Positions 8,972-62,045 of a stretch of DNA of 64,000 nucleotides are shown one piece after another. Source of the DNA: Laburnicola sp. R22_1 (taxonomy: Eukaryota; Ascomycota; Dothideomycetes; Pleosporales; Didymosphaeriaceae). Each line of letters starts with the position of its first letter. Within the stretch, counting starts at the first letter, position 1. The notes beneath the pieces were generated by a model. That model saw nothing but the letters and a program-made list of their open reading frames with translations. It had not been told where the DNA came from and searched no databases. The position numbers were made by a program, and so were the translations under genes. The stretch is taken from positions 1,364,001-1,428,000 of the forward strand of contig JACONQ010000002.1 in NCBI GenBank assembly GCA_014281115.1. Direction: 5' to 3'.

Positions 8972-10822
8972 ACGTGTTTACAAGCGAGCCGCGCGTACAA
9001 GTGAGCCGCGCGCCCCACCAACTTTCTACAACGCGTCTCATACAAACTACAATGGCTCAACTATTGTCTGCTCAATTGCGCTATAAAGAAGCAAATATCT
9101 ACCTAGCTCTTTTAGCTATTAATTCCAGTCAAATACGAAGTATAAAACGCGCTGCCGCAACGTTTTGCGTCCCTGAAACAACACTTCGCGGCCGACGCGC
9201 AGGAATCGCTGCGCGACGCGACTCTGAGCCCAAATCAAAGAAGCTTACCAAGCTTGAAGAGGAGGTGATTGTTGAGCATATACTTGACCTAGATTCGCGA
9301 GGCTTTGCGCCCACTCTAGGTGCTGTACGAGATATGGCAAATAAGCTGCTCACTAAGCGCAGCGCAGGCCACGTTGGCCAGCAGTGGCCTAGGAACTTTG
9401 TCAAGCGAACAGACAGCCTCACAACGCGATTTAATCGACCCTACAATCGACAGCGAGCCCTCTGCGAGGACCCAACGGTTATACAGGCCTGGTTTGAGCT
9501 AGTAGCACGTATAAAGGCCACCTACGGTATCTGCGACAAGGATACCTTCAACTTCAACGAGACTGGCTTTCTAATGGGTAAAATATCCTCCCAGCTAGTC
9601 GTTACTGGCTTAGAGAGGCGTGGCCAGCCAAAAGCGATCCAGCCAGGCAATCGTGAGTGGGTGACGGCGATCCACGGAATCAACGCTACTGGGTGGGCAA
9701 TCCCGCCCTTTATCATCTTCGCTGGCCAGTACCACCTCTCTGCCTGGTACGAGGGCGACGATATACCAGGTGACTGGGCTATTGGTCTTAGCGACAATAG
9801 CTGGACTACGAACGAGCTTGGTGTTGCCTGGCTACGGCATTTTATTAAGCATACAGTAGAGCGTAGAGTGGGCGCGCGTTAGCTACTGATACTTAACGGC
9901 CATAAGAGTCACAACTCGCTCGAATTCCAGGAGATCTGCAAGGAGAATAAGATCTACACTCTCTGTATGCCGCCACATTCGTCACACCTTCTGCAGCCGC
10001 CTGACGTTGGCTGTTTCTCGCCGTTGAAGCGGGCGTACGGGCGCCAGGTCGAGGGCCTGATACGCGACCACATCAACCATATCACCAAGCTTGAGTTCCT
10101 ACCAGCCTTCCGCGCCGCCTACGACCAGTCAATTATAAAGGAGAATATCTGCGCAAGCTTTCGAGGCGCTGGGCTAGTCCCACACGATCCAGAGGCGGTG
10201 ATATTAAAGCTTGATGTGAAGCTTCGTACGCCGTCGCCAGCAGCCCTACCAGAGGCCCTATGGGAGTCTGCAACACTAAGCAACGCGCGCGAGCTAGGCG
10301 CTCAGTCAACTCTAGTTCGTGAGCGGATCCAAAGGCATCAAGGATCCTCTCCTACATCAGTTATCCAGTCGCTTGATCGGCTTACAAGAGGGGCTAAGAG
10401 AATGGCGCATTCGATAGTGCTTATGCGCGATAAGATAGCTAGTCTACAGAGGGCAAATAAGGCAGCCACAACGCGTAAACAGCGCAAAAAGAAGCGGATC
10501 TAGAAGCGAGGCACCCTATTAAAGGCAGAGGGAGAGGATATTATTGCTCAGAAGGCTATTGAGCAGCAACTAGAGGGAGAAACGCGGTATAGCCAGGCGC
10601 GGTCAGGTGCGAGCCGGCAGGCTTCAGCGCGCTGCACGCGCTGCAGGGAGCCTGGGCACAACTCACGTACGTGCAAGAAAGCTTCTATAGATACTGCTTG
10701 ATTTAGGATAGCTATTATATTAATAGAATTTTGATGCGTTGTTGATATACAGCCTGCAAAAGGCTGAGAGACTTGGTGGGGCGCGCGGCTCACTTGTACG
10801 CGCGGCTCGCTTGTAAACACGT
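8972..10822 (+). mobile_element. E1: pogo/Fot-like DNA transposon, 1,851 bp
   Basis: Complete element with about 50-bp TIRs starting ACGTGTTTACAAG at the left and ending CTTGTAAACACGT at the right. It is flanked by the target TA (8970-8971 and 10823-10824). Each TIR has a 7-nt tip (ACGTGTT), then two 17-bp units TACAAGCGAGCCGCGCG and TACAAGTGAGCCGCGCG, then CCCCACCAA. It has one transposase frame. Balanced base composition in an AT-rich region and only two stops indicate a late arrival with light RIP. Confidence 0.95.
9052..10701 (+). pseudogene. E1 transposase (DDE, pogo/Fot-like), two in-frame stops
   Basis: One frame of 549 codons from ATG 9052 to TGA 10699-10701. It is broken only by TAG at 9880-9882 and 10501-10503, both explained by CAG-to-TAG. 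Order: N-terminal helix-turn-helix (about 15-50), second CENP-B/Tc5-type helix-turn-helix (about 60-130), DDE core, basic region, and a C-terminal CCHC knuckle CTRCREPGHNSRTC. The catalytic sites have DD35D spacing. Position 169 is N in FNFNETGF where family members have D, 282 is N in LILNGHKSH, and 318 is D in LQPPDVG. The two D-to-N changes are GAC-to-AAC, as RIP on the other strand would give. The copy cannot be active even without the stops. Confidence 0.92.
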
Positions 10823-10824
10823 TA

Positions 10825-11463
10825 AGTAATTTCTCCATTCGCCGTAGCTTTCCCAGCCGAATCGGAAGCATACCCTTACGCCACTCGATTTCTCTATTGT
10901 GAAGTGGGTTGCGAACAGCACTGTAAGCCACCGCACTGACAAATCAGAGACGCGCACCAGCAACCTGGTGGCTAAGAGGACCTACGATGTGGTAAGTGAG
11001 AGATAAGCTCTCGGATACGAGGCAACAGTGATCTATATGCCGTGGCTGGAGCACTAGACCCGTGGCGCTGGGTCGCATTGGCCGATTGGGGCTCCACAAA
11101 CATGTGACATGCAAACCTTCGAAGGTATGCGCAGAGTTTTAATATACGCCACAAGCCACGTTCCAACAGTATGATCTAACCCGGGAGTCCGTACCGAGGA
11201 TCGTTTATGAACCTATGAACCTATACGGGAACGTGCCCACGTTGGTTTTCTTTAGATTGCAGGTGCATGGCGCAACAAGGTTGTGCTCGACTAAACTGGC
11301 CACTACTGTAGGCAGTAGGCCGCTTGCAATAGTTGCCTGTCCAAAGACCCAGCTACAGCAGTCAGATATCGTTCTGCGCTTAATGTCTCAGCTAGCGCAT
11401 ACGAGTTTCACAGTATTAGGACAAGGGCCTCTAAGATCTGTAATTAATTCTCAGCGATCGATC
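10825..11463. other. Balanced island without a clear gene
   Basis: Ordinary base composition between E1 and AT-rich repeats. Short frames on both strands (for example 10,972-11,166 minus and 11,215-11,466 plus) show no domain and I do not call genes. It is probably a remnant of unduplicated host DNA that RIP did not touch. Confidence 0.5.
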
Positions 11464-11659
11464 TAGTTTTTAGCTAAGGTGTGCTATTTTTTAATAGGGC
11501 TGCTTTTATAGCCAACCTCTACTCTTTTAATAATAGTTATATATATAGTAATACTATAAGCTTTACTAATTACTTTTAATTTTTTTAAAAATATTTTAAA
11601 TAATATTTTTATAATTATGTTTAGAGTAATAATAAGTACTAAATTACTAGCCTTTATTA

Positions 11660-11905
11660 TACTATTTTTTAATCCTTTTTATTAATATCTTAAAACCCTT
11701 TTTTGTGTATATAATAGTAGAAGGAATAACTATTATTATTATAATATTGTTATTAGAAAAACCTCCTATCTTACTACTTTACCTTTTTTAATGCGTTTTT
11801 AGTATACCTATAGCTTTTTCTTACAGCGTTATACTATATACTAAAAGGTCTGCAATATTTCTCTTTCTAATTAGAAACCTCTTAGTTATAAAAAAATCAT
11901 ACTAT
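11660..11905 (+). repeat. Repeat D end interrupted by repeat A
   Basis: The D sequence runs up to TTATTAGAAA, is split by the A copy at 11760-11869, and resumes ATTAGAAACCTCTTAGT followed by an A-rich stretch. The A insertion is therefore younger than this D copy. Confidence 0.8.
11760..11869 (+). repeat. Repeat A, 110-bp copy with 8-bp target-site duplication, inside repeat D
   Basis: ATTAGAAA flanks it at 11752-11759 and 11870-11877. Near full length, ending TTTCTCTTTCTA. Confidence 0.8.
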
Positions 11906-11924
11906 TTTTTATATATGTGTATTA

Positions 11925-12780
11925 TTAATTAACTACTTAGGAGTAGAATAATAAAGACTTTTATCTTAAAAATTATAATAAAGAAAGCAAAGCCTCTTAT
12001 TTAGTAATTAAAAGGAGCGTAAAAATAATTTTTTATATATTTTTAGTTATTACTTAGGTAAAATAAGTATATAGTATTAATTATAATTACCTTTTTATAC
12101 TATTTTTAATTACTAAGTAAAAGATTCTATTTTTTTAATATTTTTTAAAATAAAAGCCTTTAAATTTTTATTTTTAGATAGTTAATTAATACTATATAGT
12201 GGTATTTTAATCTATTTAGAAATAGAATAATAAAGACTCTTATTTTAAATAATAATAAAAATAAAGTCTTCTACTTAGTAAATAAAAAGAAAATAAATAT
12301 AATGTGACGTTACATTAACTATCTAGAGGTAGCACGACAAAGGCTTTTATCTTAAATAACATAATAAAAAAAGCAGAGCCTCTTGCTTAGTAATTAAAAA
12401 GAGCGTAAAAAAGGTAGTAATTATAAAAAAAGCGCGTTCGAACTACTAAGCGATCTTGGCGATCTTGGCGCGCAAAATAAATATAATACTACTTTATTTA
12501 GTAGTCATAATAGCTATAAATATACTTTTTTATAATTACCTTTTATACTCTTTTTATTTACTTAGTACAGAGCTTTACTTTTTTATCATATTTTTAAAAT
12601 AAAAGTCTTTATTATTCTACTTCTAGATAGTTAATTTAATAATATATAGCTATATATATATTAAATTAACTACCTAGAGATAAAATAATAAAGGCTTTTA
12701 TCTTAAAAATATAATAAAAAAGTAGAGCCCTCTACTTAGTAATTAAAAAGAGTGTAAATATATAAATTATAAAAAAGTGA
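11925..12780. repeat. Cluster of six repeat B copies
   Basis: Approximate copies: 11,925-12,035 (minus), 12,065-12,195 (plus), 12,200-12,300 (minus), 12,304-12,475 (minus, with the GCGCG head), 12,527-12,650 (plus), 12,656-12,780 (minus). Each has the TAATTACTAAG and AAGATAAAAG landmarks in the stated orientation. Neighbours in opposite orientation would form hairpins. Confidence 0.75.
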
Positions 12781-12910
12781 TATATAGCTATAAATAATTT
12801 TTATAGAATAGTATTAGTAGTTATTATTATAGTTAGTATTAGTAATATGAGTAATATAAAATAGACTTTATAAACTAGCTAGTGCTATACTATAAGTAAT
12901 AGTATATATA

Positions 12911-13028
12911 GTTTAATTTTTTTGTAACTAAGAGGTTTCTAATAAAAATATTATAATAATAGTAGTTATTTCTTCTACTATTATAGATATAGAAAAGTAT
13001 TTTAACATAGTGTTAATAAAAAGGAGTT
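12911..13028 (-). repeat. Repeat D, 118-bp 5'-truncated copy with 12-bp target-site duplication
   Basis: ATAGTATATATA flanks it at 12899-12910 and 13029-13040. On the minus strand it ends CTCTTAGTTAC followed by an A-rich tail. Confidence 0.75.
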
Positions 13029-13629
13029 ATAGTATATATATATAATTTAGTAAAATAGCTATTTATATTTATAATAAAAATATAAAATAAATATTATATA
13101 CTAACTAAATTACCTATGTAAAAAGCTATTAAATTAACTACTAAAGTAATATTTTAGTTAAGTTTTAAACTTAAGAAAAGAGCCAAGCAATTTAACACCC
13201 GGGGCAAACCTTGCAGGAGACTGGATAGCTTCTCCGGTGCACAAAAATGTGCTCTCATTCGTTCCTCCGGGGAATGGATCACTGACGCGCACGACTCCCC
13301 CATTTGCGCATGCTGACTAGTCCTTATTAGGAAATGCTGGGACAATCTGTTTGAGCGGCCGTCGATTCCCGTCTCGTCAAGCTCCGTCCAGGCCTCAAGC
13401 TTCCGCGTCGACACCCGTTCAATGTTGCCGTAAAAACTCGCCCAAGAAACCACCACCAAAGAAATGGCTGGCCCGGATCCCAGATCCAGAAGACTCGTGA
13501 TTGTGACACACAACTTTAAGGTTCGAATCCGGCAGGATAGCTCGAAGGGTGGGTACTTCACCAGCGTGGAGACACCGTTAACGTCAGTCGTTGGATTTCA
13601 CACGCTGCCTGTCATTTTCCGTTGCATGA

Positions 13630-14850
13630 ATGTCGGCCAACGACACCCAAAGCTCTGGCAGTGCGGACCTGCCTCACGATAGCCGGGGGCCAGCCCTTCT
13701 CGCAGTGTTTTGGTCTTCGGTGGGCGTTCCTGCTATTTTCTTGGCCCTTCGCGTGTATTGCAAGAAAAAGAAGAAGTGTGCGTTGTGGTGGGATGACTAC
13801 ATTGCATTAGCCTCATGGGTAAGTCAGTTACTGTCTGAAGATGTAGCCAGGAAAAGCTAACCAGCCCAGCTGTCCCTGGCCATCTTTACCTGCATCGAGA
13901 CTTATATAGTTGTCGAACTCCAGTACGGAGCTCGCGACTGGGACATTCTTCCTGGAAACCTCGCACGCGCAGCGAAGGTAGCAGCGGGCGCGTTTCCGTT
14001 CATCATCCTGGCCATCATGGGTAGTAAAACCTCTTTCGCCCTTACTCTATTACGAATCGCAGTCGGATGGAAGAGATGGCTGGTGTGGGGTTTAATCGTC
14101 ACAACCAATGTCTTCCTTGGGTTCACTATCATCATCTACTACATACAGTGCACCCCTGTGCAAGCCTTATGGGATATTGCAGTGGAGGGGAAATGCTGGG
14201 ACCGGAACATCGCAATGATTTATCACATTTTTTCATCAGGTAAGCTTCCTTTCCCGCGTGCAGTGTGAATTTGGATGTTCGCTAAGACTATACTAGCCTG
14301 GGCCTCGCTGGTCGACCTTGCTTTGGTGTTCGTGGCATGGAAGATCATTTTGGGTTTGCGGCTGTTAGGAAGGGAGAAATGGGGTGTCGCCATAGCCATG
14401 AGTATGGGCATCTTGTAAGTGCGCCCTTGGAAGTCTGTCGGGGTGATCAAGCTGACTTGATTAGTGCTTCTGCCGCGTCCACAATAAAAACGGCTCAACT
14501 TCATCTGTTGGCTTCGCTAAGCACCTGTGAGTTCTCATCTACATAGCATCACCAATCTTCTTGATTTGTGGCTAACTGGATTGCTAGACGACGCTGTTCC
14601 TGTCTTTTACTGGGGTCCTCTCGAGATCGCCACCACACTGATCGCCGCTTCCATTCCGGCCCTTCGCCTCTTGATTAAAGATATCCGCAGACCCGCTCAA
14701 CAAGATCAGGAAGCTAACGGGGCAACAAACGCGATAACGCAATCTCAAGATAGCACGGAGTTTCTTTATATAACCAGGCTGAGGAGTCATAACCCTCTCA
14801 TTCCTGCGGTCACTGAGATAGAGACCACAACCAACGGGTCAAATGTCTAG
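13630..14850 (+). CDS. PTH11-like / fungal rhodopsin-domain seven-helix membrane protein
   Basis: Proposed exons 13630-13818, 13870-14239, 14297-14414, 14465-14526 and 14588-14850 give 333 residues. All four introns are 50-61 nt, GTAAGT/GTAAGC/GTGAGT to AG, and three have a GCTAA(C/G)-type branch site. Family marks: helix 1 after RGPALL, WWDDY at residues 53-57, a QYGARDWD-type loop, later helices around FIILAIMGSKTSFALTLLRI and IIIYYIQCTPVQALWD, and helix 7 in YWGPLEIATTLIAASIPALR. It then has a polar cytosolic tail. There is no N-terminal CFEM domain. Members of this family are plasma-membrane proteins; Pth11 in Magnaporthe senses surfaces, but the ligand of this one is unknown. It points tail-to-tail at a decayed relative at 15125-16501. 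Confidence 0.85.
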
Positions 14851-15124
14851 AGAGATTGTGGCAAGGAAAAGTGCATAGGAGTATATGTAACGGTCATGCT
14901 GAAGTAGTCTAATAAGCTGACCGCTTGGTCGTTGAAGCTAGGCAGATCCAATAGGCATTTTCACGAGGTGTTTCGGACATTCATTCATTCGTATCCGTTT
15001 ATAGTCAATCCAAACTTTTACAGATTATGAGACTTAACATCACAAACCACGGTACCTTGGTTAGGAAGAACCTCACTCTAAATACAAGTCATTGTTAAAT
15101 TTCTAACGTGTCGACTTAGTTATC
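14851..15124. other. Convergent intergenic spacer
   Basis: About 275 bp between two tail-to-tail membrane-protein genes. It presumably holds both 3' UTRs; no feature stands out. Confidence 0.6.
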
Positions 15125-16902: not shown

Positions 16903-17332
16903 ACGTACTTTGCACTCGAGTCGATCATTCCATCGAGTCGATCACTTTGCCAAGACCCCACCAAGTTCTGTACTATTCACGATAGTACAGAGTCAACACG
17001 AACTATTTTCAATAGTCCAAATAGGCCAATCTATTCAGAATCTACTTCTACAGGCTGCCTACAGGTTGTTTTGTTATGCGCAGGCTTGTCGCAGTGTCCA
17101 CAGCGCTGTTAAGCAGATTCGCCTCTATCAGCGCGCACCCTCTTCTTCGCCTTTTGCCCATCACTACGCGCCCCAAACTCCTTTAGAGTGGCCAGCCGCT
17201 GGCCCTCTTCAGCTATAAGGACTCCTTCACGCTGTACTCGCTTTCTTTTATGCGATTTACGTCGCGTGGCGGCCTTATTAGTAGCTTAAAGTTCAGCGTT
17301 ACGTTTAGTTATCAACACCAAAGAATGCCCTA

Positions 17333-19444
17333 ACGTGTCTGTGCGCGTGCCGAGCCACTTCGCGTGACGAGCTACCCAACACCATATCAGCTTATGCAAA
17401 AATGAAGCTATAGAGCCACCCACAATTAATATTATTACAGGATTTTCTAGAGAGGCACTAAATAGATCCTTGCAATTAATTTGCACTATTTATATCTATC
17501 TGGAAGCTTAACATTACGGCCGCGACGTGTAGAGATGGTTAGGGTAGCAGATGCGCCCTCTAAGGACTCCTTAACATCTAAAGCATTAATAACACGTTTC
17601 TAATATTTTCTACTCTATAGAGATGGCTAAGAGGCCTTCCTCTTACCCTTTTTAGATAACTGTAGAGCTTTTTTTACGTCGCGGGCAGACTTCTGGGCAG
17701 CGCGCTAAGCTGCCTTTTTAGCTCTCTCCTTCTCTCTTGCCTCCTTCGCTGCCTCTCGCGCAGCACGCTTTTCCTGCTAGATTTTCTCCTTGTATAGTCT
17801 AGCTACCTTCTTTAGCTCTGCTGTCTCTGCTTTTTAAAGCTGCTGCTCCTTATCCTCCTACTCCTTAATAGATTAACGGACACGTGCCTCTCTTACCTTC
17901 CTAGGTAACCAGAACACTGACCCACTGTGATACTACTTACGCTGTTAGAAATCTAGAGCTTTGCCCTTCTTCTTACGCTTCTGCTTTATAGATAGTGCCT
18001 CCCTAAGCCTATTAATATCGTGGTGGAGTAGCTCATTTTAAACAGATAGATAGTGGAGCGATTAACAAAGCTTCTGCGTATCCTTACTACTCTGATCCTT
18101 AACTGCAGAGCGTACGAGCCTATCCACCTTTCTCTAATCATAATCGCTCAGTAGGGATGAGGAGCTTTCTCTTAATTCTTGAGATCTAGTGAATCTATCG
18201 AGGATTGGATCAGGATCAGGTGGTGATATGCCTGTTGCTCTAAAAGAGCTAAGGATTGTTAATTCCTTAAAGGAGGCCTGCCATGCCTTCCAGAATAGTG
18301 GAAAGAACTTGCTCTTCTTAATAGAAACTAGGCCTTGGCCTGCGTTAAGGTATTTCGAGAGCTTAGCTAAGTAGGTAGTTAATAGAGGCTTGAACATTGT
18401 AACGTTAAGTGGCTGAAGCGTATAAGTTAAATAAGGAGGTAGGATAGCAAGTAGAATCCTATGCTTATCACAGTAGTCGATAAAATCCATTATAATGTGG
18501 GATCTATAGCCGTCTAGGATTAGAAGCTAATATGCTTGTTAAGTCTTCTCTTTTATACAGCAATCGAATATCTGTTTAAGCCAGGCAAGACCAATATTAT
18601 TATTCGTCTAGCTAGAGGGTAATAAGGTGATAAAGACTTTATATTCTTCTGCCGTAATATCTTCTATCTAGGCTAATTAGATGCCTTTGTTAGCAGCCTT
18701 ATAGATTAGGCTAGAAGGCAGAGCAGATCTATTAGCGCATATACATGCTAGAAGCGTGATCCACGCGCGGTTTCTATCCTAGAGTAATGCCCTAACCTCC
18801 TTCTTCTCCCACATTCGTCAGCTAAATATTCTCTTTAATCTGCTAACAACACTAATTATAAAGCCTTTCTCATCCATATTGTAGGTATAACAAGGATCTA
18901 TTTAATATTAATTAATCTTGTTATGTAGGAGCTGAAAGTAGAGGCGATATTTATCTTCTAAATTAGCTTTGTGGCGATTGCTGTCCATACCAACTATCTA
19001 TTGCGAGATAAGATAAATGCTGTGTTAGTTAATAAAGCGGGTAACCCAGCTCTCGCTAACTGCCTTCTTGGCTACTATAGAGGCGAAATTTCGTACTATC
19101 TCCCTAGTAGGTGGTATATGTCTCTCTGTGAGTCCTTTAATATATTTTACAAGCTCCTGCTCTTGCTATGGGTTAAGTTTCTGCTAGTTAATATTCTTGG
19201 CTTTATTTGATGCCTAAACGCACTTATGTCTTCGGGATAACGTAGTTCGATCTACACCGTAGGTGGCAGCAATATTTCTGTTCGAAAATAATTCCCCTAG
19301 ATTTAAAGATTTAATAGCTGCAATCGTATCCTTAATTGCCCCCATACTAGTGGAGTTATAACGCGTCAAATTCAGGCGATTATTTAGTGTTTTGGTGTTG
19401 GGTGGCTTGGCACGCGAAGTGGCTCGACACGCGCACAGACACGT
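17333..19444 (-). mobile_element. E2n: pogo-like transposon, 2,112 bp, nested in E2
   Basis: TIRs of about 50 bp start ACGTGTCTGTGCGCGTG at the left and end CACGCGCACAGACACGT at the right. The duplicated TA is at 17331-17332 and 19445-19446. Its 17-bp TIR units are TGTGCGCGTGCCGAGCC (17340-17356) and ACTTCGCGTGACGAGCT (17357-17373). It is a different family from E2, larger, with a transposase lacking the zinc knuckle. Confidence 0.93.
17486..19345 (-). pseudogene. E2n transposase (DDE, pogo-like), 619 codons with RIP-type stops
   Basis: One frame from ATG (complement of 19343-19345) to TAG (17486-17488), with scattered TAG/TGA codons. The N-terminus has a helix-turn-helix (NIAATYGVDRTTLSRRH). 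The catalytic core keeps D158 in YNMDEKGF and D278 in LLILDGYRSH; the third site, 314, is N in LQPLNV, with DD35D spacing. The longest clean stretch is 18134-18490. The C-terminal third is a long charged, Ala/Lys/Glu-rich region likely to form a coiled coil (KEKIxQEKRAAREAAKE), then a basic tail (TRRGRNVKLPDRYK). A start codon further upstream, within the E2 flank, would make a false fusion and was not used. Confidence 0.88.
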
Positions 19445-21070
19445 TATTAGCTTAGCGCCTTTAACGAGCTTTTCCACCGCCTTAACCATATAAGTTAGGG
19501 AACTATCTACATACCTTTAAATCCTCTACTTAACCAGCGTCGATTGCGACCCAAGTTCTATACTATTTCGCGGAGTTTGCGACTCCTATGTACTATCGCG
19601 AATAGTACAAAGTGGAGGCGTACGCAGGCGGATATTAAGCTGCGATATCACAACTTCTGGGTTGTGGGACACTAGGCCAGCACCTTAAAAGCCACCTTTA
19701 ATATTACTTTTAGTAATTAAAGCCTTAAAAGCAGCAATAAAGCAAGATAGAAACTTAATTTTAGTGATGTGCGTAATGTGGTTACGTATTAGATTCTTAG
19801 CTTAGCGCCTATACGCCTTCTTTAACGGCGTAAAACAACTCACATTAAGTGGCTATAAGAGATGCAATAAATGTAAAGGCATATAGAGAGTAATAATATT
19901 ACTCTTTTTGTAGTAATTCTAGAATTTAAGCGAGTTATAACTTTCGTGGCTATTAATAATAAGTAAATATACTTTACTAGTAGTACGCCTCTTTATATAC
20001 TTATTAAAGTGCTTTAGCCATTATAGACTAAGCTTATTTATTATCTAGCCGTTCTTAGAGACTATAATAACCTAATTATAAGGTAGATTCTTCTCCTTAT
20101 ACTAGGCAAAGAGGTAGTGCTTACTTCTAAAGATAATAAAGGATGAAATCTACTACCCTATTACGTTAATGTCTTAAATAACTATTATCCACTTCCTATT
20201 ACCCTACTACACCTACTTTAGCTATTCTTAATACTTAGAGTCTATAACTACTACTCTAGGTAATATTATACCTATTATAAAGCCAGACTCGTTAAAATTA
20301 TAGGTATTCTTATTTAGAATACTATACTTAGTCTTTATATTCTCCACAAGCTAGAACTAGCCTTATATTACCTTAGGATCCTTCTAGAGAGCTTTCTTAT
20401 AGTCGTACTTTTAATTAAACTTAACTTAAAGCTTTGGCTAGCGCTTAACAAAGTTATAAGGCTACTTCTAGCTAACTAGCTTATAGTAGCGTACAGCTAG
20501 TAAAGAATCGGCCATATCTTTTATAGCATTAAGCTGGGGTAGAAATTCTCGCGCGTTTAGATCGAGTATATGCTACATAATTACCTACTCCTCTCTTATA
20601 GTAAGTCTTAATTTATTAGGTATACAGTTGCGTCTAAATATCTTTCTAGTGCGTTAGTTACTAAGTGTACTTTAAGAGACGTTATAGAGGGCTGTAGCGC
20701 ATCACTAAGAAAGTGTCGCGTCTCATTTAATAGCCTAGATTGTAAGCTATATACGCGCTTCTTTTCACGCTAGTAGTTTATTATATAGTTAAGGCATCGC
20801 GTTATACTATTACTAATAGTACGTTTTAGTAGAGTCTTGGCAAAGTAATTAACTCGATAGAATAATCGACTCGAGTGCAAAGTACGTTATATAATACCTA
20901 TACACTATAGCTTATACGCGATGGAATTTTCTTTTTTTTATTTATACCCTTTTTAAATATAAGTAATTAATACTAAAATTAGTTTTATTATACTCTATTC
21001 TTTATATATAAGGGAATAGTAGATTATATCTTTATAAAGTTAGTAAGTAAATATTATTATTATATAAAAT

Positions 21071-46925: not shown

Positions 46926-48796
46926 ACGTACTTTGCACTCGAGTCGGACACTCCATCGAGTCGGACACTTTGCCAAGACCCCACTAAAACGTACTATCAG
47001 CAATAGTATAACGCGATGCCTTAACCACACAACAAACCACTGGCGTTAAAAGAAGCGCGTATACAGCTTGCGATCCAGGCTATTGAACGAGACGCGACAC
47101 TCTCTTAGCGACGCGCTGTAGCTATCTACAACGTCTCTTAAAGTACACTTAGCGACTAACGCGCTGGAAAGACGTTTAGACGCAACTGCGCACCTAACAA
47201 AATAAGACTTACTATAAGAGAGGAGCAGGCGATTGTGGAGCATATACTTAACCTAGACACGCGAGGATTTCTGCCTCGGCTCGATGCTATAAAAGATATG
47301 GCTGATTCTTTACTAGCTACACGCCACTACAAGCTAGTTGGCCAGAGGTGGCCTTATGACTTTGTTAAGCGCTAGCTAGAGCTTAAAGTCAAGTTCAATC
47401 GAAAGTACGACTACAAGAGAGCTCTTTAGGAGGATCCTGAGGTGATATAAGACTGGTTCCAGCTTGTGGAGAACATAAAGGCCAAACATAGTATCCTGGA
47501 CAAGGACACCTACAATTTTGATGAAGCAGGCTTCATAATAGGCATGATATTGACTAGAGCAGTAGTCACAGGCTCTAAGCGTCAAGGACGGCTAAAGCAG
47601 GTGCAGTAGGGCAATAGGGAGTGGACAATAGTCATCCAAGGCATCAACGCGATGGGTTAGTGGATCCCACCCTTCATTATCTTCGGGGGCAAGCACCACC
47701 TCTCCGCCTGGTATAAGGAGAAGGATCTACCTCATAATTGGGTTATTGCAGTCTCTGAGAACGGCTGGACAACAAATGAGCTTGGTCTGCAATGGCTAAA
47801 GCACTTTAATAAGCATACAAAGAGGCGTACTACTAGTGGAGCACGTTTGCTCATTATTAATGGCTACAAAAGTCACAACTCGCTCAAATTCCAGGATTAC
47901 TGCAAAAAGAGCAATATTGTTACTCTCTGTATGCCCTCGCATTCGTCGCACCTCTTGCAGCCACTTAATGTGGGCTGTTTCGCGCCTTTAAAAAAGGCGT
48001 ATGGGCGCCAAGCTGAGGATTTGATGCGCAACCACATCACGCACATCACTAAAATCGAGTTCCTGCCTTGCTTTATTGCTGCTTTCAAGGCTTTGTTTAC
48101 TGAAAGTAATATCAAAGGAGGCTTTCGAGGTGCTGGCCTAGTGCCCCACAACCTAGAAGCTGTGATATCGCAGCTTGACGTCCGCCTGCGTACGCCTCCA
48201 CTTTGTACTATTCGCGATAGTACATAGGAGTCGCAAACTCCGCGAAATAGTACAGAACTTGGGTCGCAATCGACGCTGGTTAAGCAGAGGATTCAAAGGC
48301 ATGTGGATAGTTCCCCAACTTATATGGTTGAGGCGGTGGAAAAGCTCGTCAAAGGCGCCAAGCTAATGGGGCATTCTTTAGTGTTGATAACCAAACGCAA
48401 CGCCGAACTTCAAGCTGCCAATGAGGCCGCCACACGACGTAAATCATATAAAAGAAAGCGATTGCAGCAAGAAGGAGTCCTTATAGTTGAAGAGGGCCAG
48501 CGACTGGCTACTCTAAAGGACTTTGGGGTGCGTAATGATGGCAAGAAGGCAAAGAAGAGGGTGCGCACTGATGGAGGCGAATCCGCTCAACAGCGCTGTG
48601 GACGCTGCGGCAAGCCTGGGCACAATAAAAAAACCTGTAGGCAGCTTATAGAAGTAGATTCTGAATAGTTTAGCCTATTTAGACTATTGAAAATAGTTCA
48701 TGTTGACTCTATACTATCGTGAATAGTACAGAACTTGGTGGGGTCTTGGCAAAGTGTCTGACTCGATGGAGTGTCCGACTCGAGTGCAAAGTACGT
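46926..48796 (+). mobile_element. E3: pogo/Fot-like transposon, 1,871 bp, same family as E2
   Basis: 59-bp TIRs differ at one base: ACGTACTTTGCACTCGAG at the left and CTCGAGTGCAAAGTACGT at the right, with TA at 46924-46925 and 48797-48798. 17-bp units: TTGCACTCGAGTCGGAC (46933-46949) and ACTCCATCGAGTCGGAC (46950-46966). It is balanced in composition and inserted in repeat C, whose empty sites exist elsewhere (for example near 51,890). Confidence 0.95.
47016..48668 (+). pseudogene. E3 transposase (DDE, pogo/Fot-like) with CCHC knuckle
   Basis: One frame of 550 codons from ATG 47016 to TAG 48666-48668, with about ten stops, mostly TAG. Two N-terminal helix-turn-helix regions, then D169 (YNFDEAGF), N282 where D is expected (LIINGYKSH) and N318 where D is expected (LQPLNVG), with DD35D spacing. 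The last 120 codons are open and end in the zinc knuckle CGRCGKPGHNKKTC. It is alignable residue for residue with E1 and E5 at the catalytic positions. Confidence 0.92.
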
Positions 48797-52963: not shown

Positions 52964-53135
52964 TAATACTTATATAAAGAAGGTCCTAAACTAGACTCTA
53001 AAGTTCTTAAGCCTTACTAACACTTTAATAATTACTATTAAAATATTAATAAAATGCCTTTAGCCTATATATATAAGTTCTATCTAGCCTTTATATAAAA
53101 CTATTCTCTTATTTTTTATTTATTCTTTTATATAT

Positions 53136-53537: not shown

Positions 53538-53650
53538 GGCGTTAAATTAACTATCTGGGGGTAGCATAACAAAGGCTTTTATCTTAAATAATATTACAAA
53601 AAAAGCAGAGCCCCCTGCTTAGTAATTAAGAAAAGTGTAAAAAGGTAGTT
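53538..53650 (-). repeat. Repeat B copy (unit 2 of the 402-bp duplication)
   Basis: As unit 1, then running into the head TGCGCGTTTAAGCTGC. Boundaries approximate. Confidence 0.75.
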
Positions 53651-54668: not shown

Positions 54669-54754
54669 GTGGCGTTATATTAACTATCTAGGAGTAGCAC
54701 GATAAAGGCTTTCATCTTAAATAACATGACAAACAAAGCAGAGCCCCTGCTTAG
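54669..54754 (-). repeat. Repeat B, 86-bp 5'-truncated copy with 14-bp target-site duplication
   Basis: TATTCTACACGTAT flanks it at 54655-54668 and 54755-54768. On its own strand it starts at CTAAGCAGGGGC and ends AACGCCAC, which fixes AACGCCAC as the constant 3' end of the family. Confidence 0.88.
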
Positions 54755-55145
54755 TATTCTACACGTATATATTACTTAAAAATACGCTTTTTTCTATTTA
54801 TTATTTATATAGAAACATAAGAGATATAGCATATATTTACTTAAAAAGGTTTTTATTTTAGTACCTATAAATAATATCTAGAAATATCTACTCTACTTTC
54901 TAGCCCTATTTTATATAATAATTGCATTTAGCACTATAGTTCTACTATATATAAAAACTATATAGTTCTATTAAGAAATGTACTAAAATATAATACTTAA
55001 TAAAAAGCCTAAGACTATTATTACTACTATAGTAGTAGGTATATAAAGTGCTTTTAATAATACTATATAACTAAAGAAACAGTATATAAAAGTAGCTCTT
55101 ATATTAAATAACCTTAATAGTCTATAGATATAAGTCTATACTAAC

Positions 55146-55290
55146 TATGTGTATGGCGTTACTTTATCTACCTAGGGGTAGGACAATAAAGGCTTTTATC
55201 TTAAATAACATAACAAAAAAATTAGAGCCCTCTACTTAGTAATTAAAAAAAGGTGTAAAAAGGTAATAAAAAAAGCGCGTTTAAACTACT
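55146..55290 (-). repeat. Repeat B copy with head
   Basis: Starts TGGCGTTACTTTATC, ends in the head region AGCGCGTTTAAACTAC. Boundaries approximate. Confidence 0.72.
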
Positions 55291-56456
55291 AAGCAAGCTT
55301 AGTAGTCTTAGCGCGAGACTACTCTTATAAGTAAATTTTTTATAAAGAGGCCACTTAGAACTTTAGAAGAGATAAGACTTTAGCGCAGCTATGCTATAAG
55401 CTATTTCTTCTCTACTATTCTAAGTTATAGACTACTATTCTAAGTTGTAAACCGCTATTTAGATTATTATAAATAATATAAGTTAATATATTAATAGGTA
55501 TATTTCTTATAAGTAGTAGGATAAGGGTAATATATACTAGATACACTATTACTCTATTACTATATTAAGGTTATCCTTAATAAATCTCCTACTATTTCTT
55601 TATATCCTACTATCTACTTAGTTAATAGCAGCCCTACTAATACTAAGGTACTTACTAATACTAAAAAGTACACACTAGAGTTTTATATACCTATTACTTA
55701 AATAATAATTACGCTAGAGTTTTACTCTATTTATAAAATACTTGTCTAGTGTAAGAAGAGATAGGTATACTTAACGATTTATAAGGCTATTCTTATCTAC
55801 TAGTTAGGTTAGTAGCTAGACTAGTTTGCTAAGAATAGAATAATTATATTCCTATACTAGTAGACGCTATTACTTCTTATTAGTAATAGAATTATTTAGT
55901 AGGGGATATAAGAGGATAATAAGGTATTTGGTAATAAGCTATAAGGTAGTAAGAGTATTATATAGATCTATAAGATCCTTCTAGCTATTATTATTACTAT
56001 TAAGTTAGCTTATCTAAGTAAGTACGTCGCGTAGCGGCGCAAGCGAGAATAACTAATAATAGTAGTAGTAATAAGCTAGGTAGGCTGTATATAGTGTAAG
56101 TGAACCTTATATTAGAACTAGAAGCTTATAGGTATTAAGGGGTGCAAGTAAGTTTAAACTATTATCGCATTACTAGATATATAAGGTTAGTCTTTAATTA
56201 GAATTAGGTACTATATATAGTAGTATATAATAATCTTTTATCTTATTCTACTTTAACCTTAAACTAAAAGAACAGGTTAAAAAGATATTTAGTAAGCCAA
56301 CCTTACTAACTATAAAATAATATTAATATTATATAAGACAGATACGTAATACGCAACTTTTCTAGCTATTTTTTTGTAGTTAGTATCTATATAAAAGTAA
56401 AGAATAGAGAAACTTATATTAATAAAAATATTCTAAATAAATATATAGTTTGCCTA

Positions 56457-56653
56457 TGTTAGGGATTCCTAAGGTGCGGCGCACTCGGCGGAAGGTTCCG
56501 CCGAGTCCCGGAACCTTACCCGATTAGGCATTAGCGCCTCGGCTACGTGTGGGTATATAAGGCAGCTGTTAACAGTCTTTATACGCCACCTCGATATCTT
56601 AGTAAAATCAACTTCTTAATTTCAACCTTTAATGCCTTGAGTGATCCCTTACA
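56457..56653 (+). mobile_element. Solo LTR, 197 bp, with 5-bp target-site duplication
   Basis: Begins TGTTAGGGAT and ends ATCCCTTACA (TG..CA with short inverted ends). GCCTA stands on both sides (56452-56456, 56654-56658). The paralogous empty site near 49,985 reads TTTGCTTAGAAACTAG. It contains a perfect palindrome CTCGGCGGAA-GG-TTCCGCCGAG and a TATATAAGG box. Its GC-rich sequence in an AT-rich host means it escaped RIP, either by being short or by being recent. The family's internal region is absent from the window. Confidence 0.93.
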
Positions 56654-56658
56654 GCCTA

Positions 56659-57660
56659 AAAACTAGTTAAGAAGATAATATTTTTTAAAAAGACTATATA
56701 GTAATAGTATAGCTAAAAAAGCTAAGTTAATTAATAACTAGTATAAGCGCTATTATTTACACTAAATTAGCATTATAAAAAAATAAGATATTATATAATA
56801 AGAGATATAGTTTAGCACTATATCTAATAAAGGATTAGCTTAATAATAAAAAAGCTAAAAAGAAGAAATATATATAAAGAGATATTTTAAGTAGAGAATA
56901 AAAAAAGAATAAAAAAGAAAAAGCTAGCTGTATATATCTCTTCTCTTTATTTAAAGCTTTAATTTCTATTCCTTACTAGTATTTATCCTCTTCTTCTTAT
57001 ATTATTACCTAAATATATAAAATAAATAGGTCTATTTATTATATAAGAAATAAACTAAGTAAAAGAGCTCTATATAAATAATATATTATTACTATAATCT
57101 TATTATTACCTATATAATTTTATCCTTAACTACTATTAGCTAAATAGCTACTTTATTATTAATAAATCTAATTACGCCTCTAATAAATAGTAGTAAAGTA
57201 TAATAAATAATTACTTAATAAAATCTTTTTACTAACTAGAGTAAACTAGTAAAATTAAAGAATATATAGATAAGAAATAAATAAATAAATAGGGTAAATA
57301 TTAGTAAGTAGATAGTTTATATAAAGAAAGAAAGAACTACTAATAGTAACTTTAAAATAAAAAGTTACTAGTATCTATATACTATATAGGTAAGGGCACT
57401 TAAAAGTAATAAGGTTTTAATATTACTATATAATAGTATTATATAGGGATTATATAATACTTATACACTATAGCCTATACATTATAAGATCTTCTTCTTT
57501 CTATTTATACCTTTTCTAAATATAAGTAATTAATACTAAAGTTAGTTTTATTATATTATTTCTTTTTTATACGCTTATTTATATACCCTCTACACTTACT
57601 AATATAGATCTAGTAGATATCGCTCTCTGTATAGCTAGCTGTAGAGTACCTATTCAACAC
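56659..57660. other. RIP-like AT-rich segment 8
   Basis: Continuation of the decayed repeat that holds the solo LTR, paralogous to 49,990-50,940. It keeps an empty E2-type site near 57,437. No open frame. Confidence 0.75.
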
Positions 57661-58035
57661 AATGCGGTTTATGTGGAGTGCCACCCTCAAAGATAAGGTT
57701 CACGCCGTTCTTTTAGCTTTTTAGACCCCCCGCGTTCCAGTCCCCAGGCTCGGAATCCGGATGCGTGCCGGTAGCGCGGTATCAGTGCTTTCGTGGCGTC
57801 AGGGGGTTTTTTCATACAAATTTTGACTGTGCGCACGAAAGCACTGATACCACGCTAGGCACCCGAGCTGGGGGGTTGAGTGTATGTAATACACGCTACG
57901 CATGCGGGCTGAGGGGAGGATTGCATTCGGCCCTTCTCAGAGGCTCCCCGCGATTGGCAATCACTTTCGCTTTTGCGGTGCTTTGCTCCGATCCAATGAG
58001 ACAAAAAGCAACAATCTGTTTTAGAATAATGAATA
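57661..58035. other. GC-balanced island with a long hairpin
   Basis: About 375 bp of non-decayed sequence between AT-rich repeats and E4. It holds the inverted repeat listed next. A 141-codon plus frame (57765-58190) runs across the hairpin into the E4 TIR and is not called a gene. Confidence 0.6.
57742..57875. repeat. Imperfect inverted repeat, about 45-bp arms
   Basis: Core arms GGTATCAGTGCTTTCGTG and CACGAAAGCACTGATACC are perfect complements separated by about 40 nt. They are extended outward by GCG, TGCC/GGCA and CCCCAGGCTCGG/CCCGAGCTGGGG. It may be a MITE remnant or an end of an unknown element; no target-site duplication found. Confidence 0.8.
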
Positions 58036-58037
58036 AG

Positions 58038-59827
58038 CTAGCGCGTATAGTTCCTGCGCACATAGGGTTCCTGCGCACCTCACCAAAACGCGACACCTGC
58101 ACAAAACACGTCAGATTTCTCCACAACGCTCTGCAACAATGGATACTCGTGAGACTGCTATATCGCGAGCTCTTTCTGATCTCTCTATAGGTATTTTTTC
58201 TAGCCGAAGGGCTGCAGCTAAGGCGTACAGGGTCCCTGAGTCTACACTACGCAACCGTCTTAATGGCGCAACGAATAGTGCGCTCAGCCATTAGCATTAG
58301 CAGCGGCTGACTCCTCTACAAGAGGACTTCCTAGTAGACTGGATCCTCGAAGAAGACGCACGCGCCTGCCCTCCCTCACACGCTCGCGCTTGAGAAATAG
58401 CCAATCGAATCCTACGTATGAACGGCGATAGTCAGCCTATTAGTAAACTCTGGCTCTCACACTTTATTAAGCGACAGCCACGCGTCGCCTCAGTTATCGG
58501 TAGAAAGCTCGAGGCTTAGAGAGCTGATGCAGCGACTCTAGAGCAGTTGCGCGCGTTCCTAGAGCGCTATGAGCAGACTCGACAGCGGCTTAACATACAG
58601 GCGGAGAATACATACAATATAGATGAGACTGGCGTTGCTCTAGGAGTATGTACAAACACTAGAGTACTCTCTAGTAGTCAGAAAAAGAAGGCTTACATTC
58701 GGTCTCTAGAGAATCGCGAGTGGGTCTCTATAATTGAGTGTGTGTTGGCGATAGGGCGGAAACTACGCTGCGCGGTTATCTTCAAAGGCCAGAGCCTACA
58801 AACTACCTGGTTCCCATCGTCCTACGTACCTAGCTGGCTGTATACAACCTCAGAGAACGGATAGACATCGAAAGCAATAGGTGTTGAGTGGCTGCAGCGC
58901 ATATTTATACCTGAGACGGCTGTAGGTGATAGCTAGTACCGCCTCCTTATCCTCGACGGCCACGGCAGCCACATTGATATAGAGTTCCTATGGCTCTGTA
59001 AACAGCATCGAAGAGAGCTCCTATACCTACCTGCGCATACCTCGCACGTCCTACAGCCTCTAGATCTCGCCCCTTTCTCCGTTATCAAGTCTAGTTACCG
59101 ACGCCAGATCCAGGAGCTTGCATCGCTTGACGACGCCGCACCTATTAAGAAGGAGCGCTTTATTGCCTGCTATTATTAAGCTAGGGAGGAAGGCTTCACA
59201 GAGCGTGTGATTCGAGCTGGCTGGCAGGCTGCTGGTATCTGCCCATTCAACATCAATCACGTGCTCAGCTCGTCGCAAGTCTCCCAGAGGCCTACTACGC
59301 CTACGCATTAGCAGCAGCCTCAGCAACAGCCTTAGAGCTTCCTCTCGACCCCTTAAGGCCCTCGCGATCTCTATATAGCGCAGCGCGACGTCTAGAGCGT
59401 CGAGAATCTAGGTCGTAGGACCCGGCTACTCCTACAGAAAGCAGGTAAGGCTCTAGCAGCTGCAAATGCTAGAGCTGCAGGGCTAGAATTAGAGAAAAGA
59501 CGCCTTGAGTATCATCTACAGACTACTAGCTCTCAGCGTCCTCGAAAGCGCGTTCAAATAGACCCAAATCGACGCTTTGCAGAGGTAGAGACTATCGTAG
59601 AGGCTATACGCGCAGCTGAGGCTGCAGGAGCTCAGCAGCAAAGATCTACTACAGTAAGCGCTTCAGAGACAGCTACTATAGTTACAGCAGCTGCAGCGCT
59701 TGAATCTATGTGTACACAATGGCAATTATAAGAGCGTTGTGGAGAAATCTGACGTGTTTTGTGTAGGTGACGCGTTTTGGTGAGGTGCGCAGGAACCCTA
59801 TGTGCGCAGGAACTATATGCGCTAGCT
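58038..59827 (+). mobile_element. E4: pogo-like transposon, 1,790 bp, TIRs near 97 bp
   Basis: Left TIR starts AGCTAGCGCGTATAGTTCC and the right ends GGAACTATATGCGCTAGCT. The arms match over about 97 bp with few differences. TA is at 58036-58037 and 59828-59829; the right TA is also the left TA of E5. 17-bp units: GCGTATAGTTCCTGCGC (58045-58061) and ACATAGGGTTCCTGCGC (58062-58078). Confidence 0.93.
58139..59731 (+). pseudogene. E4 transposase (DDE, pogo-like), stops only
   Basis: One frame of 530 codons from ATG 58139 to TAA 59729-59731, with about a dozen TAG/TGA stops, as expected from CAG and CGA. It starts with a helix-turn-helix (RRAAAKAYRVPESTLRNRL). All three catalytic D are kept: D162 in YNIDETG, D273 in LLILDGHGSH and D309 in LQPLDLAPF, with DD35D spacing. 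The C-terminal part is Ala/Gln/Glu-rich with likely coiled coil and has no zinc knuckle, unlike E1, E3 and E5. Of the copies here, this one has the least damage to its catalytic core. Confidence 0.92.
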
Positions 59828-59909
59828 TAACATATTCTATCAGTAGCCCGGACAGATCAGTCCGCCGGACAGTTTTTGCCAAGACCACAACACTTCACTA
59901 TAAATCATA

Positions 59910-61604
59910 ATGTCTCAACAACACGACGCGTTATCATCTAATTAAGAAGGCAGAATTAAGCTTGCCCTTTACGCCTATTAGAATAAGCAAATTTCAAGCC
60001 TGCGACGCGCTGCTACAGCATATAATATCCTAAAGTCTACACTAAGCGATCGAATCAACGGAATCACCGCCCAAGCAGATACACGATCAGGCATGGCAAA
60101 GCTCACCGCGACTGAAGAGCAGACGCTCATACAGTATATCCTCAACCTAGATTCGCGAGGATTTGCACCCCGGCTAGGTGAGGTGGAAGATATGGCCAAC
60201 AAACTGCTGGCTGCGCGGCACAGAGACCCTATAGGACAATACTGGGCTCAGCGCTTTGTAAAGCGCGTACCTGAGCTTAAAATGGCTTTTAATCGAGCGA
60301 AGGACCAATAGAGGATACAACAGGAAGATCTAGAGGTTATAAACGCGTGGTTTCAGCTAGTGGAGGACACAAAAGCCAAGTATGGAGTGCAGGATAAAGA
60401 CATCCATAACTTCGATAAGACAGGCTTTTAGATAGGAGTTATTAGCTCAATAAAGGTTGTAACTGGTTTAGAAAGACGTTCTTAACCTACGCTTGTTCAG
60501 CCAGGCAACCGCGAGTGGGTTATAGTGATTCAGAGTATTTGCGCTGCTAGGTATGCTACCCTGCCCTTTATTATCTATAAAGGGCGAGTCCACATCTCAG
60601 CGTAGTATGAGGAGACCAGTATCCCCCGCGATTGGAAGCTCTCAGTCTCTAAGACTGGCTAGACTAACAACGAGCTTGGAGTTGCGTGGTTAAAGCACTT
60701 TAACGCGTATATAAGGCCGCGCATGGTGGGGTTATAGAGGTTACTTATTCTGGACGGCCATAAGAGCCACTACTCCCAGGATTTCAAGGATTATTGCCTG
60801 GAACAGAAGATCCTAACACTCTGTATGCCAGCGCACTTATCTTATATCCTCCAGCCGCTTAATGTGGTCTGTTTCGCGCCACTAAAGCTGAAGTACTCCC
60901 AGCGCGTGCGGGACTTGGCGCGCCGACGCGTCTTTTATATCAACAAAGAGGGCTTCCTACTGGCCTTTTGCGACGCGTTTTTTAATGTGTTTACACTAGA
61001 AAACTGCAAGAAAGCCTTTAAGGCCTCTGGGCTTGTTCCTTTAGATGCGTTAGTAGTAGTAGATCGCCTTGATGTGCGTATTCACACTCCACCTCAGGGT
61101 ACCCCACCGGATACACCATGGCAAGCCAGGACCCCAACCAATACCCTTGAGTTTAGATCCTAGTCAAAGCTCGTACGCGACTCTTTTATTCGGTCTCCAC
61201 CCGATGCTAAATCAAGCTACTCACAGCTCATAAAAGGTGCTGAACTTATACTCTACCATAGTGTACTTTAAGAGACCCGCATTAAGGAACTTGAGGAGCA
61301 AATTAAGGTTCTAATAAAGCGAAAAACGCGTAAAAGAAAGCGCATTCAGAAAGGTAGGACGCTAGGCTTTGCTTAGGGAGCAGATTTGGGAGTAGAAAGC
61401 CCTTCTATTGGGGTGAAGTTGTCGAAAAGGGCGCGAGGTAGTGGTGAGGGAGAGGCAGGTCCCTCAACACAACGCCGCTGTGGGAGGTGCGGAGAGCCTG
61501 GGCACAACGCAAGGACCTGTCAGATAGATAAAGAGATAGAGGAGGAGTCAGATGTTACCCTTAGCGGCTTATTTTCAGATAGTGTTGATAGTAAATCAGA
61601 GTGA
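59910..61604 (+). pseudogene. E5 transposase (DDE, pogo/Fot-like) with CCHC knuckle
   Basis: One frame of 564 codons from ATG 59910 to TGA 61602-61604, with about a dozen stops. It aligns with E1 and E3: D169 kept (HNFDKTGF, neighbouring E now K), D282 kept (LLILDGHKSH), N318 where D is expected (LQPLNV). Open stretches are 60093-60311 and 60825-61163. The C-terminus has a basic region (KRKTRKRKR), the zinc knuckle CGRCGEPGHNARTC and an acidic Ser-rich tail. E1, E3 and E5 are thus three branches of one zinc-knuckle group with different TIRs. Confidence 0.92.
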
Positions 61605-61832
61605 TTTTATTATAGGTTACTATAAGGCCAAAAATGACGGGTTAACTTCATCTTGCAATAGTACGCACTCAGTGACTGAAAATTAGATAAAGTACTACTT
61701 AAGATATAGTATGCTTCACTGCGAATCATAATAAGTATACTATATATTGCCTACGTATAGTATGGTAGATAATATATCGTATATTATAGGGAGTCTTGTT
61801 GTAAGTTCGTACTGCCAAGAAAGACTCCTTAG
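61605..61832. other. E5 3' non-coding region
   Basis: No frame or recognisable motif; moderately AT-rich. Confidence 0.5.
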
Positions 61833-61861
61833 CTTTGCGCGGCTGCAGCAGCCGCGCAAAG
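61833..61861. repeat. 29-bp perfect palindrome in the E5 3' region
   Basis: Arms CTTTGCGCGGCTGC and GCAGCCGCGCAAAG around a single A. GC-rich hairpin in otherwise AT-rich surroundings; could act as a transcript end or a binding site (inference). Confidence 0.9.
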
Positions 61862-62045
61862 AGGCTGCACGACGTAAAAAGTAGATTAAATAGTAACTTG
61901 GTATATTGTAAGTTATAGTAGGTTATTATGAGTCACTATGAAGTAACGTTGGTGGTGTTCTATAATGAGTTATGAGGGACCTCGAAGTTGCCAAGAAAAA
62001 CTGTCCGGCGGGCTGATCTGTCCGGGCTACTGATAGAATATGTTA

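What the first reader, a model, noticed from the sequence alone, without database searches (positions are those of the whole stretch)
8972..62043. Five unrelated pogo/Fot TIR families share one hidden plan: 7-nt tip plus two 17-bp units
Each TIR was read from its outermost base. E1: ACGTGTT, then TACAAGCGAGCCGCGCG and TACAAGTGAGCCGCGCG. E2/E3: ACGTACT, then TTGCACTCGAGTCGGAC and ACTCCATCGAGTCGGAC. E2n: ACGTGTC, then TGTGCGCGTGCCGAGCC and ACTTCGCGTGACGAGCT. E4: AGCTAGC, then GCGTATAGTTCCTGCGC and ACATAGGGTTCCTGCGC. E5: ACATATT, then CTATCAGTAGCCCGGAC and AGATCAGTCCGCCGGAC. Unit sequences differ entirely between families, but the units match within each TIR, mostly in their inner 10-13 bases. 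The register (8-24, 25-41) is the same in all five. The transposases have paired N-terminal helix-turn-helix domains of the CENP-B kind, and the CENP-B box is itself 17 bp. Inference: each TIR binds two transposase molecules side by side, and sequence specificity changes while geometry is held. I recall internal repeats being described in Fot1-type ends, but not this common register.
Basis: partly seen in the sequence, partly recalled or inferred. Interest (0 to 1): 0.88.

Follow-up and report, generated by a model that had tools for sequence, protein, structure and literature searches.

The report
Transposon ends follow a recognition code
In this fungal genome most examined ends of Fot/pogo-type transposons carry two 17-base repeats, and key letters of each repeat track amino acids in one helix of the element's own transposase, which likely reads each repeat with that helix, so that related transposons would gain separate end recognition by swapping a few residues.

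Summary
In detail: the named TIRs carry two 17-bp direct repeats after a 6-7-nt tip. In 34 two-unit families of the same genome, offset 17 is the best self-match in 32 (pooled match 0.60, other offsets 0.19-0.33). The repeats are not new: 17-bp direct repeats in fungal Fot/pogo TIRs, and their suggested binding by the HTH/CENPB domains, are in print (PMC2836289).

What looks new is a recognition code. The last seven bases of both units switch together between related families, and they track residues of the first (psq-type) HTH recognition helix. Residue x2 goes with TIR base 20: Arg/Lys G 17 of 17, Asp/Gly C 13 of 13, Ser/Thr/Asn/Met T 5 of 5, Ala mixed. Predicted from other clades it is right in 28 of 28 scorable families. 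Residues x1 (base 23) and x3 (base 22) are looser. Sliding the register gives a signal only at 0 and +17. Each unit is therefore most likely one CENP-B-like DNA-binding-domain site, psq HTH inward. Contact and stoichiometry are untested, and all families come from one genome.

The parts
8972..10822 (+). E1 element, TA on each side
8978..8994 (+). E1 left end, unit 1 (aligned on the core)
8995..9011 (+). E1 left end, unit 2
10800..10816 (-). E1 right end, unit 1
10783..10799 (-). E1 right end, unit 2
9172..9195 (+). E1 transposase, psq recognition helix PETTLRGR (x1 E, x3 R, x2 G)
16903..20887 (+). E2 element, interrupted by E2n; 1871 bp without it, like E3
16910..16926 (+). E2 left end, unit 1
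16927..16943 (+). E2 left end, unit 2
17333..19444 (-). E2n element nested in E2 (damaged transposase on the minus strand, X7-like ends)
17340..17356 (+). E2n, unit 1 of the end at 17333
17357..17373 (+). E2n, unit 2 of the end at 17333
19229..19252 (-). E2n psq recognition helix DRTTLSRR (x1 R, x3 S, x2 R)
46926..48796 (+). E3 element
46933..46949 (+). E3 left end, unit 1
46950..46966 (+). E3 left end, unit 2
48773..48789 (-). E3 right end, unit 1
48756..48772 (-). E3 right end, unit 2
58036..59827 (+). E4 element
58043..58059 (+). E4 left end, unit 1
58060..58076 (+). E4 left end, unit 2
59804..59820 (-). E4 right end, unit 1
59787..59803 (-). E4 right end, unit 2
58235..58258 (+). E4 psq recognition helix PESTLRNR (x1 E, x3 R, x2 N)
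59830..62043 (+). E5 element
59837..59853 (+). E5 left end, unit 1
59854..59870 (+). E5 left end, unit 2
62020..62036 (-). E5 right end, unit 1
62003..62019 (-). E5 right end, unit 2
60030..60053 (+). E5 psq recognition helix LKSTLSDR (x1 K, x3 S, x2 D)

Best explanation
Each 17-bp unit is most likely the complete binding site of one transposase DNA-binding domain, whose first (psq-type) HTH is predicted to read the inner seven bases and whose second (Tc5-type) HTH would read the outer part, so that a usual end would hold two transposases in tandem. Shown by sequence: two units in a fixed register at most ends read; the inner seven bases switch together in both units between related families while some outer positions keep their unit-1/unit-2 difference; these bases follow residues of the psq recognition helix [VI]-x0-x1-[ST]-T-L-x3-x2-R, x2 with base 20 (and 37), x1 with base 23 (and 40), x3 with base 22. 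Arg or Lys at x2 goes with G and Asp with C; Arg at x1 goes with C on this strand, that is G on the other. Inferred: that this is direct contact; that the Tc5 HTH reads the outer part (both are nearly constant among E1 families and among E4a-f); two transposases per end and four per synapse; and that switching pays because it escapes cross-mobilisation by relatives.
For: Offset 17 best in 32 of 34 two-unit families. Core positions 11-17 agree between units in 221 of 231 cells, against 144 +/- 7.8 with unit 2 permuted within clades (0 of 10000). Within-clade permutation reaches the association in 0 of 2000 trials for x2-base 20, 0 for x1-base 23 and 1 for x3-base 22 (77 pairs tested). In a scan of 4571 domain-column by base pairs, x2-20 ranks 1st, x1-23 3rd, x2-37 4th and x1-40 7th. 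Register scan: summed excess information 1.90 at 0 and 1.48 at +17, at most 0.36 at the other 26 shifts. Leave-one-clade-out, x2 to base 20 right in 28 of 28 scorable families, majority-base baseline 6 of 28. Base 20 needs at least 12 changes on a tree of the domain without the helix. Predictions noted beforehand: base 20 right in 6 of 6 flank families and 3 of 3 later families. The AlphaFold model has x1, x3 and x2 at residues 34, 38 and 39 of recognition helix 34-42.
Against: No binding was measured. All families are from one genome. x1 fails for E3 (Arg with A), E5d (Glu with C) and the Gln and Lys families; leave-one-clade-out it is 23 of 28 against a baseline of 19, and within the E5 clade x1-23 shows no signal. 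x3 is loose (19 of 33, baseline 9) and is not among the top 30 pairs of the unbiased scan. Within single clades x2-20 is only moderate (E4 223, E1 138, E5 346 of 5000 permutations). Some Tc5 columns with few variants rank between the psq pairs. Outer positions 1-10 also agree between units more than permuted (212 of 330 against 168), so the switch is not confined to the core. Six ends have one unit. CENP-B is no clean test: its helix PPSTLST on the last seven bases of its box fits x1 and x3 but not x2, and another window of the box fits equally well.
Confidence: 0.78

Rival explanations
1. The units resemble each other only because tandem repeats are homogenised by slippage or gene conversion; no protein reads them alike.
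For: Unit number varies by whole 17-bp steps within families E1f, E3, E4e, E4h and E5b, so slippage or unequal exchange does occur.
Against: In E4a-d and E4w unit positions 1, 6 and 7 differ between the units in every family while five different cores appear; whole-unit homogenisation would erase that. It does not explain the link to helix residues.
Confidence: 0.06
2. The residue-to-base link is an accident of shared descent: helix and end are inherited together without contact.
For: The families are related and clades were drawn by me; some residue and base types occur in one clade only.
Against: Permutation was within clades; base 20 changes at least 12 times on the tree; the rule learned on other clades is right in 28 of 28; the signal sits at registers 0 and +17 only.
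Confidence: 0.05
3. One transposase spans both units, its two HTHs each reading one unit.
For: There are two HTHs and two units; single-unit ends exist and stoichiometry was not measured.
Against: The same psq residues track bases in both units: x2 with 20 and 37, x1 with 23 and 40. Two HTHs of different sequence would not be expected to read the same core.
Confidence: 0.08

Closest known systems
Fot/pogo transposons of fungi with 17-bp direct repeats in the TIR: Trem, Aft1, Tan1 (PMC2836289)
   Same: TA target, psq and Tc5/CENPB domains with a DDE domain, TIRs of 42-49 bp built of two 17-bp direct repeats, which were suggested as binding sites (passages)
   Different: No residue-to-base rule, no concerted core switching and no unit-number variation is reported in the passages seen; its figure 2 (comparison with Pot2 and Fot1) was not available
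Fot/pogo-type families of Sclerotinia sclerotiorum (PMC4188875)
   Same: HTH_psq, HTH_Tnp_Tc5 and DDE, TA target, ACGT tips (passages)
CENP-B and the 17-bp CENP-B box (1hlv)
   Same: Only PDB profile hit up to E 0.1 (E 0.0018) and first Foldseek hit (E 8.2e-3, probability 1.00, TM 0.39); a 17-bp site (PMC4585704, passage)
   Different: Host protein and a single site; its box is not a clean match to the code
Other pogo lineage of the same genome (ends CAGTCAACTC)
   Same: DDE_1 and HTH_Tnp_Tc5 hits, TA flanks
   Different: 23-bp TIR; best offset 15 at one end and no clear repeat at the other

Membership tests
Fot/pogo transposons of fungi | DDE_1 transposase domain | tested here: met
   E1 PF03184 E 2.4e-9; 150 scored places in the genome
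Fot/pogo transposons of fungi | psq-type and Tc5/CENPB-type HTH at the N-terminus | tested here: met
   Of four domains scanned, Tc5 over cut-off in 4 and HTH_psq over cut-off in 2 (E4b, E5b); E1 and X1 have no psq hit over cut-off but align with the others there
Fot/pogo transposons of fungi | TA target site on each side of the TIRs | tested here: met
   Five window elements on both sides; other families required or found by TA, so not independent there
Fot/pogo transposons of fungi | TIR with two 17-bp direct repeats | tested here: met
   32 of 34 two-unit families; 139 of 150 ends
Fot/pogo transposons of fungi | Catalytic DDD triad with its spacing | not tested
   Residues of the triad were not mapped
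CENP-B-type DNA-binding domain | Two HTHs in one chain, similar to 1hlv | tested here: met
   Profile E 0.0018; Foldseek first hit but TM 0.39 and no hit at E 0.001 or better
CENP-B-type DNA-binding domain | Binds one 17-bp site | not testable with these tools
   Needs footprint or SELEX
CENP-B-type DNA-binding domain | CENP-B and its box obey the code found here | tested here: inconclusive
   Helix, box; last seven bases fit x1 and x3 but not x2, another window fits equally well

The most novel reading that the evidence does not exclude
Fot/pogo transposases use a compact, transferable recognition code: three helix positions of the psq HTH choose three bases of each 17-bp unit, almost one residue to one base at x2. 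Lineages have re-aimed themselves at least a dozen times in one genome by changing these residues together with all sites of the element, geometry untouched, and the same code would apply to psq-type HTHs in general, domesticated ones included.
Probability: 0.5. Interest if true: 0.86.

Novelty: new variant of a known kind. Interest (0 to 1): 0.75.

Why it matters
How a cut-and-paste transposase and its ends change specificity together, when one protein change must meet up to four DNA sites, is an open question. Dozens of related families in one genome give a natural experiment in which residue, base and fixed geometry can all be read. If true, the rule would let one predict from a transposase which ends it can move, which non-autonomous elements belong to it and which relatives can cross-mobilise. 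The ten full-text searches made here (listings, with passages of seven papers) showed no such code for pogo or psq HTHs; most subscription papers are not held, so an earlier report may exist.

Tried and rejected
Third unit everywhere: a box like ACCCCACCAA follows unit 2 in many families and resembles the outer half of unit 2 in E4e-i and some X families. It may be a core-less half unit; not tested.

Other pogo lineage as part of the same plan: rejected.

CENP-B box as a clean test of the code: inconclusive (see above).

Tc5 HTH mapped to the outer part by covariation: not resolved; the hits come from columns with few variants.

An independent set from viral contigs: no match. Relatives in the protein database (371 at E 1e-10, best 120 listed, 89 covering the domain) have no linked DNA here. 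In those 89, x2 is the third most variable of 103 columns next to an invariant Arg, but x1 ranks 44 and x3 32.

Rows left out of the 37-family code table: E2 and a second E3-like type (L011), both with stops inside the helix; E2n, damaged and X7-like; Y2, damaged, same core and same three residues as Y1; L049 and L118, no recognisable end. For E3 the helix is that of L112; damaged copies L024 and L016 read Gln at x1, and the scan used L024. E1f reads Gln in L101 and L102 but Arg in L103 and was scored as Gln. E4j (L022) has only its unit-2 core. E4k and E6 (one unit) and X4 (step 18) were left out of unit-1/unit-2 counts; E4k and E6 out of the offset count.

The tip of E1e is ambiguous. For many families only one end was read.

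Only five of these (base 20 in three, base 23 in two) follow from the rule written before their proteins were read; their cores had been seen earlier. Two of the six flank ends scored (the L077 one and the type in L041) had been printed before, not yet joined to a protein. L044 and L046 of that list could not be scored (own end displaced by an insertion).
Full report
Observation. All TIR strings of the finding were found at their places, with TA on each side of the five elements. Offset 17 is the best self-match (offsets 6-30, first 45 bp) at all 11 ends tested and was reached by at most 14 of 5000 shuffles. E2, treated with E3 in the finding, differs from it at 5 of 41 bases and is a complete element, 16903-20887, into which E2n was inserted.

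Setting. The window lies in a 63.9-Mb genome of 26 contigs with 2759 candidate DDE_1 places, of which 150 were scored. I read 40 regions of 5.6 kb, 40 of about 0.85 kb, 20 of about 0.53 kb and 10 of about 0.3 kb around transposase hits, besides eight loci. This gave 36 families with a readable end and psq helix, plus E4j with one core. I grouped them in five clades named by me: E4 (12 with E4j), X (11), E1 (7), E5 with E3 and E6 (6), Y (1).

Geometry. Of 34 two-unit families, 32 peak at offset 17, X4 at 18 and X9 at 28 with 17 close (0.59 against 0.54). The pooled match is 0.60 at 17 against 0.19-0.33 at other offsets; bases 61-105 of the same elements give 0.25 at 17. Nine of the 34 ends were placed by eye with the repeat in view. 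Of 150 distinct ends, 139 have two units at 17, three step 18, one step 16, six one unit and one three (five of the 139 counted by eye). A further end without its tip (L102) shows three units, the first cut by the edge of the region.

What varies. Unit 1 and unit 2 agree at positions 14-16 in 33 of 33 families, at 12 and 13 in 32, at 17 in 31, at 8-11 in 27-31, at 2-7 in 17-26 and at 1 in 1. Related families share tip, outer half and the box after unit 2 but differ in the core of both units: E1 GCCGCGC, E1b GCCGTCA, E1c GCTGCGA, E1d GCGGCGC, E1f GCGGCCC. Core agreement is 221 of 231 against 144 +/- 7.8 with unit 2 permuted within clades (0 of 10000); outer positions 1-10 also agree more than permuted, 212 of 330 against 168 (0 of 10000). 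In E4a-d and E4w positions 1, 6 and 7 differ between the units in every family while five cores appear; four of these five families have identical bases 12-17 in both units. In 13 complete elements, bases 20, 22 and 23 are the same at all four sites in 11; E2n and Y1 have one deviating site each.

The code. In E1 families and in E4a-f the Tc5 HTH is nearly constant, while the psq recognition helix varies at x1, x3 and x2. Base 20 and x2: Arg G 15 of 15, Lys G 2 of 2, Asp C 9 of 9, Gly C 4 of 4, Thr T 2, Ser, Met and Asn T 1 each, Ala G and T. Base 23 and x1: Arg C 17 of 18, Glu G 6 of 7, Pro G 3 of 3, Leu A 2 of 2, Gln T 2 and C 1, Lys A and T, Thr A, His C. Base 22 and x3: Arg C 13 of 15, Ser purine 12 of 15, others mixed. 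Permuting bases within clades reaches these associations in 0, 0 and 1 of 2000 trials; the residue after x1 with base 21 (4 of 2000) is a further candidate (77 pairs tested). In a scan of 4571 domain-column by base pairs, x2-20 is first, x1-23 third, x2-37 fourth and x1-40 seventh; x3 is not in the top 30, and Tc5 columns with few variants stand between.

Register. When all families are slid together, the summed signal is 1.90 at 0 and 1.48 at +17, and at most 0.36 at the other 26 shifts from -10 to +16. This is a protein-side confirmation of the 17-bp step. The four E1 types with a 6-nt tip were shifted by one base to align with E1e-g. Without these four, x2-20, x3-22 and x1-23 are reached in 0, 1 and 0 of 2000 permutations; with no shift at all, in 0, 17 and 1. 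Single clades are small and give weaker results: x2-20 in E4 223, E1 138 and E5 346 of 5000; x1-23 in E4 0, E1 153 and E5 5000 of 5000.

Prediction. The rule for bases 20 and 23 was noted, before the proteins of E4c, E4d and E4f were read; five predictions followed and were right. The full rule was then held against flank families: base 20 right in 6 of 6, base 22 in 4 of 5, base 23 in 4 of 5. Of three new families (L109, L111, L115), bases 20 and 22 were right in 3 of 3 and base 23 in 2 of 3. The same call showed E3 with Arg at x1 and base A, against the rule. Leave-one-clade-out, x2 to base 20 is right in 28 of 28 (baseline 6; nine of 37 have a residue not seen elsewhere), x1 to base 23 in 23 of 28 (baseline 19) and x3 to base 22 in 19 of 33 (baseline 9). 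The strong claim is x2; x1 and x3 are tendencies.

Fold. The AlphaFold model of the E4b domain (mean pLDDT 78.6, pTM 0.50) puts the recognition helix at 34-42, with x1 at 34, x3 at 38 and x2 at 39. The only PDB profile hit up to E 0.1 is CENP-B on its box, 1hlv_A, E 0.0018; it is also the first Foldseek hit, E 8.2e-3, TM 0.39. That Arg and Lys often contact G and Asp C in HTH helices is general knowledge, not from a call. In 89 database homologues x2 is the third most variable of 103 columns, next to an invariant Arg.

Mechanism. The simplest reading is one DNA-binding domain per unit: psq HTH on the inner seven bases, Tc5 HTH outward, catalytic domain towards the tip. Two units then offer two tandem sites per end and four per synapse. 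Contact, stoichiometry and the place of the second HTH are inferred. One-unit ends, one of them before a long open frame (L112), suggest that one site may suffice in some cases.

Known or new. PMC2836289 (passages) says that Trem TIRs consist of two 17-bp direct repeats like those of Aft1 and Tan1 and passes on the suggestion that HTH and CENPB domains bind them. PMC4188875 (passages) found no direct repeats in Sclerotinia families. From recall only, Pot2 was described with 16-bp direct repeats. The ten paper searches made listed no residue-to-base code for these proteins.

Noticed in passing
16903-20887 with 17333-19444: E2n is inserted at a TA inside E2; without it E2 is 1871 bp, the length of E3.
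   Followed up: yes
L101, L102, L103; L107/L117; L112; L046; L028: The number of 17-bp units per end varies (1, 2, 3) between copies of one family.
   Followed up: partly
bases 42-51 of many TIRs: A box like ACCCCACCAA directly follows unit 2 in families with different units and resembles the outer half of unit 2 in E4e-i and some X families; perhaps a core-less third half unit.
   Followed up: no
L009-L016, L019, L022, L050: A different pogo lineage (CAGTCAACTC ends, 23-bp TIR) has a repeat at offset 15 at one end only.
   Followed up: partly
L086, L087, L004 and L028:233: Family X4 has step 18 at three ends; one E4c end has step 16.
   Followed up: no
L021, L045, L046, L064, L082, L088: Fot/pogo elements are often nested in or directly beside the ends of others, cutting some units.
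   Followed up: no
58036-62043: E4 and E5 lie back to back, only two bases apart (E4 ends 59827, E5 starts 59830).
   Followed up: no
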